From assembly GCF_901000735.1 (NCBI RefSeq), contig NC_081550.1:9504716-9568715 (forward strand): 64,000 nucleotides of DNA, in the 5' to 3' direction. Of the stretch, positions 40,469 through 51,218 are shown one piece after another. Each line of letters opens with the position of its first letter. Positions within the stretch are counted from its first letter, which is position 1. The translations under genes and the position numbers were made by a program. The stretch is from Corylus avellana. Its lineage: Eukaryota; Streptophyta; Magnoliopsida; Fagales; Betulaceae. Below the pieces are notes generated by a model. The model saw only the letters and a program-made list of their open reading frames with translations, was not told where the DNA came from and did not search any database.

Positions 40469-43400
40469 AGACTGAGGGTTAGAAGTCTTCTTAGAAATTG
40501 GAAGGTGGATATAGTGTGCTTCCAGGAGACTAAGGTGGATTTTATTTCTTATCACTTTGTGAGGAGTTTGTGGGGATGTTCTTATGTGGAGTGGTGCTAT
40601 GTTCCGTCCAGAGGGGCCTCGGGAGGAATTCTGGTTATGTGGGATAGAAGGGTTGTTACGAAGGTTGAGGTTGCTTTGGGCAGGTTTGTGGCAGCTGTTT
40701 CCTTTAGGAATGTTGATGATGGGTTTGTGTGGGCTTTTGGGGGGGTGTATGGTCCAAACAAAGACAACATTAGGCGTTATCTTTGGGAGGAACTGGTGGG
40801 CCTTATGAGTTGGTGGGACATGCCTTGGTGTATTGGTGGGGATTTTAATGTTACTCTTCTTTCTAGTGAAAGGTCGGGGGGAGTTCATTCTCGATCCGCG
40901 ATGAGGGAATTTGCAGATTTTATATCGGAGCAGGAACTTATGGATCTTCCTTTAGCTGGGGGGGTTTCCACTTGGTCTAACAATCAATCCTGGTCAAGGC
41001 TAGATCGATTCCTTGTTTCCACTGATTGGGAAGTTCATTACCCGGACGTGCGACAAAAAAGGATGCTTCGTGTTTGTTCGGATCATGCTCCTATTGTTCT
41101 TGATTGTAATTGTTTGTTGGGAGGTAAGAGACCATTCAAGTTTGAAAATATGTGGCTCAAAGCAGAGGGATTTGTGGACAAAGTCAGAAGTTGGTGGGGT
41201 TCTTATCATTTCCTTGGCACTCCGAGTTTTATATTGGCAAAAAAGATGCGAGCTCTCAAGGAGGACATTAAGAAATGGAATAACCAGGTGTTTGGCAATG
41301 TGGAAGGGCATATCAAGGCTCGGATGGAGGAATTAAAAACTCTTGACAGGGTGGATGAAGAGAGAGGTTTATCCTCTGAAGATATTGAGAGGAAGGGGTC
41401 GCTATCTAGAGAATTGGAGATCCTTCTGTTACAAGAGGAAATTAGTTGGAGGCAAAAATCTAGGGTCCGGTGGTTGAAAGAGGGAGATAAATGCACAAAA
41501 TTTTTCCATAGGATGGCCAATGCAAATAGAAGACATAATACTATAGAGACGTTGATGGTGGATGGTTCAACGACTTCAGATCAAGAGGTTATTAGTGATC
41601 ATGTTACTCACTTTTACGAGGCTCTTTTCAAAGAGAATCTCACTTGGAGACCGAGGCTAGAAGACCTTGCTTTTGACATGTTAGATGTTGGGGAGGCTTC
41701 TAGGTTGGAGACTCCATTTGAGGAAAAGGAGGTTTGGGAGGTGGTGAAAGGGATGGATAGGGATAAGGCCCCAGGTCCGGATGGCTTCTCTATGGCTTTC
41801 TTTCAGGATTGCTGGGATGTGATCAAGGGGGACATTATGGCGGTCTTTGCGGAGTTTCATGATCGAGGTAAATTTGAAAAAAGTCTTAATGCCACTTTCA
41901 TATCCCTTATTCCGAAGTCTCATGGAGCAAATGATTTAAAGGATTTTCGTCCGATTAGCCTTGTGGGAGGGACTTATAAGATTATTGCCAAGGTCTTGGC
42001 TAATAGGATGAAGAGAGTAATGAACAAGGTTATCTCTAAACCCCAGAATGCTTTTGTTAAAGGCAGGCAAATCCTGGACTCAGTTCTCATCGCCAATGAG
42101 TGTCTGGATAGTCGTATCAGATCAGGGGAACCTGGCTTATTGTGCAAATTGGACATGGAAAAGGCCTATGATCATATGAATTGGAAGTTCCTTCTTTATC
42201 TTCTGAGAAGATGCGGTTTTGGAGAAAAATGGTGTTCCTGGATTGAGCATTGTATCTCGTCTGTGAGATTCTCGGTCTTGATTAATGGATCTTCGTCCGG
42301 CTTCTTTGATAGTTCACGTGGTGTGAGGCAAGGCGACCCTCTTTCTCCATTCCTGTTTGTTTTGGTCATGGAGGCCTTCAGCAGGTTGATTGATGCATCG
42401 ATAAATAGGGGTCTCATTTCTGGGTTTTCAGTGGGGGCTAGAGAAGCGGATCAGGTTATCGTCTCTCACCTCCTCTTTGCTGATGATACTCTGGTATTTT
42501 GTGGGGCAGATCCTACTCAAGTAAGAAATATTGGTGCTCTTCTAGTTTGCTTTGAAGCTGTCTCAGGGTTAAAGGTAAACTTGGCCAAATCCGCTTTGGT
42601 CCCTGTAGGCACTATGGAAAATGCGGGCATGCTGGCTGGTATTTTGGGATGTGGTACAGCTACTACGCCATTCAAGTATTTGGGTCTCCCCCTGGGGGCC
42701 TCGTTCAAGGTCAAGACCATATGGGAGGATGTGTTGGAAAAATATGTCAGAAGACTGGCCTCTTGGAAACGCTTGTATTTATCTAACGGGGGGGAGGATC
42801 ACTCTCATTAAGAGCACCTTATCCAATCTTCCCACCTATTTTCTGTCTCTGTTTCCTATTCCAGCATCAATGGCGAAGTGCATTGAGAAGATTCAACGCG
42901 ATTTCTTATGGGGTGGGATTGATGATGAGTTTAAGTTCCATCTGGTCAATTGGGATAAGGTTTGTTATCCGATCACTGAGGGAGGTTTAGGCATACGGAA
43001 TTTGCGGTTGATGAATCAAGCTTTATTGGGAAAATGGTTGTGGAGATTTGCTCATGAGAAAGAGGCTTGGTGGAGAAAGATCCTGGTGGCAAAGTATGGT
43101 GCGGTTTGGGGAGGTTGGTGCTCCAGGGTTCCCAGAGGATCGCATGGAGTAGGGTTTTGGAAGCACATTTGTAGGGGGTGGAGGTCGTTCCAAGACCACA
43201 TTAGATTTGTCCCAGGTCGTGGGTCCAACATCAGGTTTTGGGAGGATATCTGGTGCGGTGACATGCCTCTCAGGGAGGTTTTTCCTGGACTTTTCAGCAT
43301 TGCCACCAATAAGGATGCGTCTATTGCAGACAATAGGGAATGCTCAAATGGCTCTGCTCAGTGGAGTGTTTCCTTCACTCGCAGGGTTCACGATTGGGAA

Positions 43401-44148
43401 GTGGAGGTTTTGGCTTCTTTTTACTCGCTATTGTATTTGCATCCAATTGGTGGGGAAGGGGAGGATAGAATAAGGTGGATCTATTCGCGGAAAGGCACTT
43501 TCGAAGTAAGATCTTTTTATAGGATCCTTGCATCTAAAGACCTCACTCCTTTCCCTTGGAAAAGTATTTGGTGCACCAAGGCCCCTTCGAAAGTGGCTTT
43601 TTTTGCTTGGACGGCCGCGCTTGGAAAAATTCTTACTTTGGACAATGTTCGGAAAAGGGGTATTGTGGCGATAAACCGTTGTTGCATGTGTGAATCAAAT
43701 GGGGAGTCCATTGACCATCTCTTTCTACACTGTGGGGTGGCGCGCACCTTATGGAACGCCATTTTCACTCGGTTTGGCTTGTGTTGGGTTATGCCGGGCA
43801 GCGTTAAGGAGATGTTCGATTCTTGGTGGAAGGGTGGTAAAACTAGTAGCGCCGTTGTGTGGAAGATGGTCCCTCTTTGCCTTATGTGGTGCATTTGGAA
43901 CGAGAGAAACGCAAGAAATTTTGAGGACTCGGCCAGGAATTTAGAGGAGCTTATTCACTTTTTCTTGTACACCCTCTTCACTTGGACTGCTGGTTGGCTT
44001 GCGCCTATAGTGATCAGCTTCCAAGATTTTCTTATTAGATTTTCTTCCTCTCTTTCTTCTTCTTAGTCGCTCTCTTGTATACTCCCGGTGTACTAGGGTT
44101 GCGCCCCTCTGCGCCTTTGATAAATATATCGTTACTTATCAAAAAAAA
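40469..44148 (+). mobile_element. LINE insertion in contig C (5'-truncated, frameshifted ORF2)
   Basis: Non-LTR retrotransposon of the plant L1 type. ORF2 starts inside the endonuclease domain (DIVCFQETK) with no native ATG. It continues through GGDFNVTL, SDHAPIVL, the RT block LLFADDTLVFC (about 42470-42502), and the zf-RVT region (CCMCESNGESIDHLFLHC, about 43682-43735). Relative to contig D, one extra C at about 42786 (ctaacggg versus ctaaggg) shifts the frame, and the second half stays open to 44066. The conserved tail is at 44070-44148. The left flank holds the target aatagagctttaaa but the right flank is unrelated. Confidence 0.88.
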
Positions 44149-50600: not shown

Positions 50601-50834
50601 TATGAAAAGAGGACTCACATCAAGCCAAGTGAGGACAAAAGCAATTCTAAGAAAAGAAAATTCTTCATCACTTGACCTAAGTGATTTCAATTTATTCATA
50701 ACCACTACAGCTCTGCAACCTGATAATAGTGAACAAGCAGAACTAAAAAGATTGGCACTTACCTGCATATGAATTAAGCCGGTCCAAATGAAGTATATGC
50801 AACCACTTGGGAATGTCAATATTTAAATGTATTC
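45722..50834 (-). CDS. Membralin-like membrane protein, five internal exons
   Basis: Five minus-strand exons join in phase with GT/AG borders: 50763-50834 (IHLNIDIPKWLHILHLDRLN), 47368-47429 (VQWLENRSKAFEPTYIYTME), 47151-47245 (GYFLLPEGAKSRHNIR ... ARHSCFGN), 46512-46591 (WQQLLINRIVGYDTILMNSL) and 45722-45805 (GYLYNYQTKEFYNLSYAQVP ... EGPARFG). The order and wording agree with what I remember of plant membralin (TMEM259 family, multi-pass ER membrane protein; the animal protein acts in ER-associated degradation). These exons are the lumenal N-terminal half; the first exons and the transmembrane C-terminal half are missing. The gene sits within what would be an SE intron, which is suspicious (see findings). 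The name is from memory; a BLASTP search would settle it. Confidence 0.68.
47542..47729. repeat. T run and (AT)n/(AC)n microsatellite in membralin intron
   Basis: A T run at about 47562-47584, (AT)n at about 47654-47681 and (AC)n to about 47698. The last 9 bases (47721-47729, atgattttt) are the left TSD of the next element. Confidence 0.8.
47730..48195. mobile_element. Mutator-type MITE, 466 bp, 9-bp TSD
   Basis: Starts GGGAAAAGTCCACATACACT and ends ...AGACTTTTCCC; the right end complement reads GGGAAAAGTCTACATACCCT. Long TIRs extend inward over about 90 bp (acaatgtctc..., caattgagacaatgtc). The flanks atgattttt (47721-47729) and atgattctt (48196-48204) form a 9-bp TSD with one mismatch, typical of Mutator-like elements. 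Non-coding. It lies between the two rightmost membralin exons. Confidence 0.8.
48205..50762. other. Membralin large intron, right part
   Basis: A/T-rich sequence with A runs (about 48821-48849), two similar stretches (about 49260-49390 and 49540-49640: aagaagaaaaa...acataaa...ccatctctctac) and no recognised exon. Confidence 0.4.
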
Positions 50835-51218
50835 CTGCAAGATTCTACAATTAAAAAGTAAAATTCAGCAAAGAGAGATTAGGCCTTGATACAAGAAATC
50901 AAGTAATGACCAACTATGGTACAGACTCTAGGTTTCTCCACATAAACCATTTAGAAATTAAAATATTTTCAGAAAACATGGATGGAAAAACATGTGAGAA
51001 AGATAGAGGTGGGCGAGAGTAATTGAGCAAGAAATGCATCAAATACTGAAGGTACCAATCAGTCCTGCTTGCAGACAAGAAGAAAAATTAAAACCCCATC
51101 TGTTAAGAGTTCATCACACTCCAAGAATAGAGTATGCAGGAGAATAATATAGAGCATGTATTGAAAATCAAATAAAGACAAGAATTAAGAAAAAATAAAT
51201 AAATAAATTTAATAAGAT

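What the first reader, a model, noticed from the sequence alone, without database searches (positions are those of the whole stretch)
40600..51218. Contig C looks chimeric: joined to another locus through a LINE at about 40.83 kb
Left of ~40.83 kb, C matches contig D nearly base for base. Right of it, the LINE body is a clearly different copy. Its 3' end lacks the target duplication present in D, and the flank is unrelated sequence with membralin exons. D is self-consistent (matching TSDs, resumed host LINE, SE exons). The best model is a misjoin within near-identical LINE sequence; a real ectopic LINE-LINE recombination is the biological alternative.
Basis: partly seen in the sequence, partly recalled or inferred. 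Interest (0 to 1): 0.75.

Follow-up and report, generated by a model that had tools for sequence, protein, structure and literature searches.

The report
Assembly misjoin through a LINE retrotransposon
One contig of this draft plant genome most likely splices one gene's region wrongly to part of another gene from a different chromosome, because both contain look-alike copies of a jumping gene; it is an ordinary assembly error rather than new biology, but it leaves both genes cut on this contig.

Summary
Contig C (33113-51218) follows contig D up to 40836. At 206 LINE sites that separate D's copy from four 97%-identical relatives, C is D-type at 20 of 23 left of 40837 and relative-type at 183 of 183 from there on. 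The switch lies in a 44-bp tract (40793-40836) identical in C, D and three of the four relatives. C's LINE has D's left target duplication but another insertion's right flank. Further tests agree. (1) SERRATE residues 191-567 lie in D and 565-740 in C-left: path D keeps the gene continuous, path C breaks it, and path C also cuts membralin. (2) The own genome holds membralin, residues 1-670, on another chromosome (C1). C-right matches it at 0.68% substitutions, like a second allele, and C1 lacks C's LINE. (3) C-left and D-left differ by 0 substitutions in 2017 columns (8 in 2728 if nothing is left out), against 0.7-0.8% for two allele-like pairs, so they look like one haplotype; a heterozygous translocation would normally differ there. 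No reads or Hi-C were available, so a real rearrangement is unlikely, not excluded.

The parts
33113..40792 (.). C-left: SERRATE-locus part of contig C, including the 5' end of D's LINE
   Evidence: 0 substitutions to D in 2017 columns, 8 in 2728 with nothing left out; 20 of 23 diagnostic LINE sites D-type
33243..33302 (-). SERRATE last exon, residues 721-740 of the Alnus protein P0121
   Evidence: tblastn, 90% identity
36056..36619 (-). SERRATE exons, residues 565-720 (one intron inside)
   Evidence: tblastn, E 1e-72; no Pfam family on the two open frames from here
40455..40468 (+). Left copy of D's target-site duplication, AATAGAGCTTTAAA, as present in C
40469..40792 (+). D-type 5' part of the LINE in C (three relative-type sites at 40608, 40609, 40647)
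40793..40836 (.). Switch tract: identical in C, D, L024, L025 and L026; one mismatch to L027
40837..44148 (+). LINE body of a different copy; 0 of 933 differences to L024 up to 41769, then 72 of 2378
   Evidence: 183 of 183 diagnostic sites relative-type
44149..51218 (.). C-right: part of the membralin locus, also on chromosome C1:25052164-25045096 (98.4%)
45711..45806 (-). Membralin exon, about residues 325-353; the last one before the LINE
   Evidence: splice phase 1
46510..46593 (-). Membralin exon, residues 298-325
   Evidence: 100% to Alnus P0242
47150..47263 (-). Membralin exon, about residues 266-298
   Evidence: weak Pfam Membralin hit, E 0.096, below its cut-off
47368..47439 (-). Membralin exon, about residues 246-266
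50764..50844 (-). Membralin exon, residues 219-245; residues 1-218 have no match in the window
53671..53684 (+). Left target-site duplication of D's LINE
53685..57350 (+). D's LINE: 5'-truncated, 1194-aa open frame 53685-57266 with endonuclease, RVT_1 and zf-RVT
57351..57364 (+). Right target-site duplication of D's LINE; the host LINE resumes at 57365
59037..60696 (-). SERRATE exons, residues 191-567
   Evidence: tblastn, E 4e-174; PDB 3ax1 E 2e-124; Pfam ARS2
51219..51318 (.). 100-N gap between contigs C and D

Best explanation
Contig C is an assembly chimera. The assembler followed reads of the SERRATE locus (chromosome C10) rightwards into an intronic LINE. Inside a stretch identical between LINE copies (40793-40836) it passed to a related LINE, and it came out in a membralin intron that belongs on chromosome C1. 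The true local order is C-left followed by D. C-right is most likely a second allele of the C1 membralin intron carrying a LINE insertion that the C1 allele lacks. Shown: the switch point, the mixed target-site flanks, the two broken genes, the complete membralin on C1, and the near-zero divergence of C-left from D-left. Inferred: that an assembler made the join, and that C-right is an allele rather than a recent duplicate.
For: Diagnostic sites: 20 of 23 D-type left of 40837 and 183 of 183 relative-type from there; one breakpoint fits 203 of 206, reached by 0 of 10000 label shuffles. Mixed target flanks and empty-site test with its control. SERRATE residues 191-567 lie in D and 565-740 in C-left, with splice ends in phase 0. 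Membralin residues 219-353 lie in C-right and no other part matches in the window; residues 1-670 of 672 lie in order on C1, and SERRATE has no match in the C1 stretch looked at. Substitutions: A/B 97 of 11600 (0.84%); C-right/C1 48 of 7036 (0.68%); C-left/D-left 0 of 2017, chance 1e-6 at 0.68% and 4e-8 at 0.84%; with nothing left out, 8 of 2728, chance 0.005 and 0.0003. C1 reads CTTTAAATTTATATAAACCC where C has the LINE end. FRS3 (contig A) and SE share a contig length in 20 of 31 species, SE and membralin in 0 of 35. The A/B overlap is a dovetail (29 bp left over); C overhangs its overlap with D by 7070 bp.
Against: No reads, coverage or Hi-C were available. C-left and D-left could simply be homozygous. 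With the tandem repeat and LINE start kept in, the haplotype test is much weaker. The three relative-type sites at 40608-40647 inside the D-type part do not fit one clean switch. The proper 5' flank of C's LINE was not located: C1:25056001-25064500 matched only itself near full identity, next best 86% and partial, with 40 of 2364 candidates scored. FRS3 and SE do not share a contig length in 11 of 31 species.
Confidence: 0.93

Rival explanations
1. Real heterozygous rearrangement: LINE-LINE ectopic recombination between the SERRATE intron on C10 and a LINE-bearing membralin allele on C1 produced a translocated chromosome, assembled as contig C, while D represents the normal homologue.
For: The switch lies between homologous LINEs in the same orientation, as such recombination would give. 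Both genes are on the same strand. C-left and D-left do differ by 8 of 2728 when the tandem repeat and LINE start are kept in.
Against: C-left and D-left differ by 0 of 2017 substitutions elsewhere, against 0.7-0.8% for two allele-like pairs. Membralin is complete on C1. The allele would lose SERRATE up to about residue 566, and membralin-to-SE splicing would join phase 1 to phase 0, out of frame (phase of the missing exon inferred). No second near-identical copy of the membralin left flank was found.
Confidence: 0.04
2. Real duplicative insertion of a LINE plus 7 kb of membralin into the SERRATE intron, present in one allele or beside D.
For: Membralin-region fragments 87-93% similar to C occur again at C1:26716655-26725000, so this region has partial duplicates in the assembly.
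Against: D crosses the same site directly into SERRATE exons with a perfect target duplication. C-right ends at a contig gap and never returns to SERRATE. The left boundary is a LINE-LINE switch, not an insertion junction.
Confidence: 0.02
3. D, not C, is the misjoin.
For: D and C disagree, so one must be wrong if there is a single allele.
Against: D has matching 14-bp target duplications, resumes the host LINE and continues SERRATE. The FRS3-SE neighbourhood agrees with 20 of 31 other species.
Confidence: 0.01

Closest known systems
Repeat-mediated chimeric contig, a known class of assembly error (class name from general knowledge)
   Same: Join inside a dispersed near-identical repeat, gene models broken on the false path, a correct overlapping contig next to it
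   Different: Here the switch is mapped to 44 bp and the foreign arm looks like an allele of a locus on another chromosome
Plant LINE-1 type non-LTR retrotransposon (name from general knowledge; domains tested)
   Same: Endonuclease, reverse transcriptase and zf-RVT, A-run at the 3' end, 5' truncation and a 14-bp target duplication in D
   Different: C's copy is composite: its 5' part and 3' part belong to different elements
Ectopic (non-allelic homologous) recombination between LINEs
   Same: Would give the same anatomy
   Different: Expected allele-level divergence of the left flank and a reciprocal product were not seen

Membership tests
Repeat-mediated assembly chimera | Sharp switch between two repeat copies inside a tract identical to both | tested here: met
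   203 of 206 diagnostic sites fit one switch; tract 40793-40836. Three sites do not fit.
Repeat-mediated assembly chimera | The foreign arm belongs to a locus that is complete elsewhere | tested here: met
   Membralin residues 1-670 on C1; C-right 98.4% to C1
Repeat-mediated assembly chimera | No reads span the junction | not testable with these tools
   No reads held
Real LINE-LINE ectopic recombination | Left flank shows allele-level divergence from the normal contig | tested here: not met
   0 of 2017 substitutions, or 8 of 2728 with nothing left out; homozygosity remains possible
Real LINE-LINE ectopic recombination | Reciprocal product present | tested here: inconclusive
   Only one near-identical copy of C1:25056001-25064500 among scored candidates; a one-sided assembly could hide it
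Plant L1-type LINE (D copy) | Endonuclease, RT and zf-RVT domains in one frame | tested here: met
   Pfam PF03372, PF00078, PF13966 on 1194 aa, all above cut-off
Plant L1-type LINE (D copy) | Target-site duplication and A-run tail | tested here: met
   14 bp plus A-run. Of four other copies cut short by over 50 bp against the query, two (L032, L039) have a 13-bp repeat at both ends and two (L033, L035) show none there
Plant L1-type LINE (C copy as one insertion) | Matching target duplications at both ends | tested here: not met
   Left AATAGAGCTTTAAA, right TTTATATAAACCC
SERRATE orthologue | Collinear match to SERRATE | tested here: met
   Residues 191-740 in order across D and C-left; 1-190 have no match in the window
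Membralin orthologue | Collinear match to membralin over the whole gene | tested here: met
   On C1, residues 1-670 in order; on contig C only 219-353

The most novel reading that the evidence does not exclude
Contig C is a real recombinant chromosome: a young heterozygous C10-C1 translocation made by LINE-LINE recombination that cuts SERRATE and membralin in one step.
Probability: 0.04. Interest if true: 0.55.

Novelty: not a real feature. Interest (0 to 1): 0.12.

Why it matters
Uncorrected, contig C gives a false membralin-SERRATE linkage, a truncated SERRATE and a spurious second part-membralin on the wrong chromosome. It also shows that scaffold neighbours here can be redundant, so gene duplicates and structural variants called from this assembly need checking. 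The C1 site may reveal a LINE insertion polymorphism in a membralin intron.

Tried and rejected
Pfam alone did not identify membralin: of three stretches given, one scored E 0.096, below its cut-off, and two nothing; two C-terminal SERRATE frames also gave nothing. Full-length relatives were used instead. A viral-contig scan for LINE relatives found none. Papers: searches were seen as listings only; PMC6972722, PMC7757076, PMC11152071, PMC8054262 and PMC8695561 were seen as passages found by term. None carries the verdict. The species stays unproven.

Considered and rejected: that the 7% divergence is sequencing noise (third-position bias); that C's right-hand LINE is the old LINE already in the C1 intron (its four longer aligned stretches are 80-84% identical and one of 53 bp is 91%; it ends 47 bp before C's junction); that D is the wrong contig.

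A possible second switch near 41770 (0 of 933 differences to L024, then 72 of 2378) was left open: natural mosaicism of the LINE family would also give it.

Full report
What is there. The window is five contigs (A 1-19847, B 19948-33012, C 33113-51218, D 51319-63695, E 63796 on) separated by runs of 100 N. Neighbours overlap: A's last 11.7 kb equals B's start at 98.1%, and E starts inside D (98.5% over the 206 bp visible). A/B is a dovetail overlap, 29 bp left over on A. D runs 5266 bp past its visible match with E, but E is cut by the window, so that overlap cannot be judged. C overlaps D from 38098 to 44148 and then runs on for 7070 bp.

The switch. Left of the LINE, C and D show 0 substitutions in 2017 columns. 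I left out 38098-38119, the tandem-repeat region 39206-39669 and everything from 40601, after seeing that the differences lie there. With nothing left out the block to 40836 has 8 substitutions and 9 gap openings in 2728. From 40837 to 44060, 230 of 3211 sites differ, mostly at third codon positions (105 of 139 in 40837-42780). The own genome holds four relatives of C's LINE at 97%, L024-L027. At 206 sites these four agree with each other and D differs. C carries D's letter at 20 of 23 such sites left of 40837 and the relatives' letter at 183 of 183 from 40837 on. The exceptions are 40608, 40609 and 40647. The last D-type site is 40792; from 40793 to 40836 C, D, L024, L025 and L026 are identical, with one mismatch to L027. 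One breakpoint fits 203 of 206 sites; 0 of 10000 shuffles of the labels do as well.

Insertion anatomy. D's LINE has a perfect 14-bp duplication on both sides (53671 and 57351). C has the same left copy (40455), but after the A-run it continues TTTATATAAACCC (44149); the longest word shared by C's two flanks is 8 A, reached by 281 of 2000 shuffles. Joining D's flanks without the LINE gives a collinear match to LINE reverse transcriptase across the junction, 38% identical and with stops, as expected of an old host element; joining the left flank to C's right flank gives a match that ends before the junction. So the left end of C's LINE belongs to D's insertion and its right end to another.

Genes. 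Against the Alnus protein P0121, SERRATE residues 191-567 lie in D (60696-59037, minus) and 565-740 in C-left (36619-33243, minus), with splice ends GTATGG and TCTGCAG between codons. C-left then D makes a continuous gene with the LINEs in one intron of about 9 kb (my estimate from coordinates). C-right holds membralin residues 219-353 on the minus strand (50844-45711); no other part matches in the window. The last exon ends in phase 1, while the SERRATE acceptor is phase 0, so even a fused transcript would be out of frame (the phase of the missing exon is inferred from the Alnus protein).

Elsewhere in the genome. After many unanswered tries the own-genome search replied four times. The window is C10:9504716-9568715 of a 370-Mb assembly in 12 records. 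C-right is also on C1:25052164-25045096 at 98.4%. C1 carries membralin from residue 1 to 670 of 672 in order, the LINE site lying in the intron between 25050602 and 25064130, and no SERRATE match in the 40 kb looked at. At C's LINE junction C1 reads straight through, CTTTAAATTTATATAAACCC, with an older LINE ending 47 bp upstream. C1 therefore looks like the empty form, and C-right like a second allele with a LINE insertion. The intron part C1:25056001-25064500 has no second near-identical copy among the candidates scored (40 of 2364), so the other half of that allele is missing or collapsed. The left block 38098-40460 has two near-identical places, those of C and D; the next are 79-83% or less and partial (40 of 616 candidates scored).

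Allele test. Substitution rates: A/B 97 of 11600, C-right/C1 48 of 7036, C-left/D-left 0 of 2017. If C were the rearranged homologue of D, its left flank should show similar divergence. The chance of none is 1e-6 at 0.68% and 4e-8 at 0.84%; with nothing left out, the chance of 8 or fewer in 2728 is 0.005 and 0.0003. Homozygosity of this stretch is the remaining escape.

Synteny. From named species in the best 120 rows listed, typed by hand, FRS3 (contig A, 3.8 kb onwards) and SE lie on a contig of the same length in 20 of 31 species; SE and membralin in 0 of 35; FRS3 and membralin in 1 of 36 (Erythroxylum, where the locus numbers are about 400 apart). Contig length is a proxy: each row stands for a cluster and reports its longest contig. 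Locus tags agree: Castanea dentata SE 08G105600 beside FRS3 08G105700; Castanea mollissima SE 08G086900 against membralin 01G354800. So A, C-left and D belong together, and membralin does not.

Possible composite middle. From 40837 to 41769 C equals L024 exactly (0 of 933; 1 of 933 to L025 and to L026), then differs by 72 of 2378. C's seven private substitutions against L024-L027 all lie from 42870 on. An assembler walking through a collapsed repeat would give this; so would natural exchange among LINE copies. I do not lean on it.

Source. The closest named proteins are from Fagales (Morella FRS3 91%; Alnus SE 92% to my composite query). The size resembles published hazel assemblies of about 370 Mb (passages). 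This is inference, not identification.

Verdict. Observation confirmed, interpretation supported: an assembly artefact of a known class, with a possible residue of biology, a LINE insertion polymorphism in a membralin intron.

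Noticed in passing
38806-39620 (C) and 52022-52836 (D): A 407-bp tandem repeat of LINE-like sequence: the two copies are 100% identical in C but 97.8% in D, and D's first copy equals both of C's. One copy may have been overwritten in assembly or polishing.
   Followed up: partly
8140-19818 (A) and 19948-31588 (B): A's end and B's start are two versions of the same 11.7 kb (0.84% substitutions), placed in tandem in the scaffold; an FRS3 exon is thereby duplicated (9382-9513 and 21190-21321).
   Followed up: yes
own genome C1:26716655-26725000 (L009): Partial copies of the membralin region (87-93% to contig C) around two 100-N gaps, one piece present twice: a partial duplicate, or further misassembly.
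   Followed up: partly
own genome C1:25052150-25052170: Likely empty site of a LINE insertion polymorphism in a membralin intron: CTTTAAATTTATATAAACCC in C1, LINE A-run directly before TTTATATAAACCC in contig C.
   Followed up: partly
53685-57266: D's LINE keeps a 1194-aa open frame although 5'-truncated; C's frame is broken near 42800, at a run of G.
   Followed up: partly
40608-40647: Three relative-type letters inside the D-type part of C's LINE. At 40609 and 40647 D differs from its sister L029; at 40608 L029 agrees with D. Possibly mixed-read consensus.
   Followed up: partly
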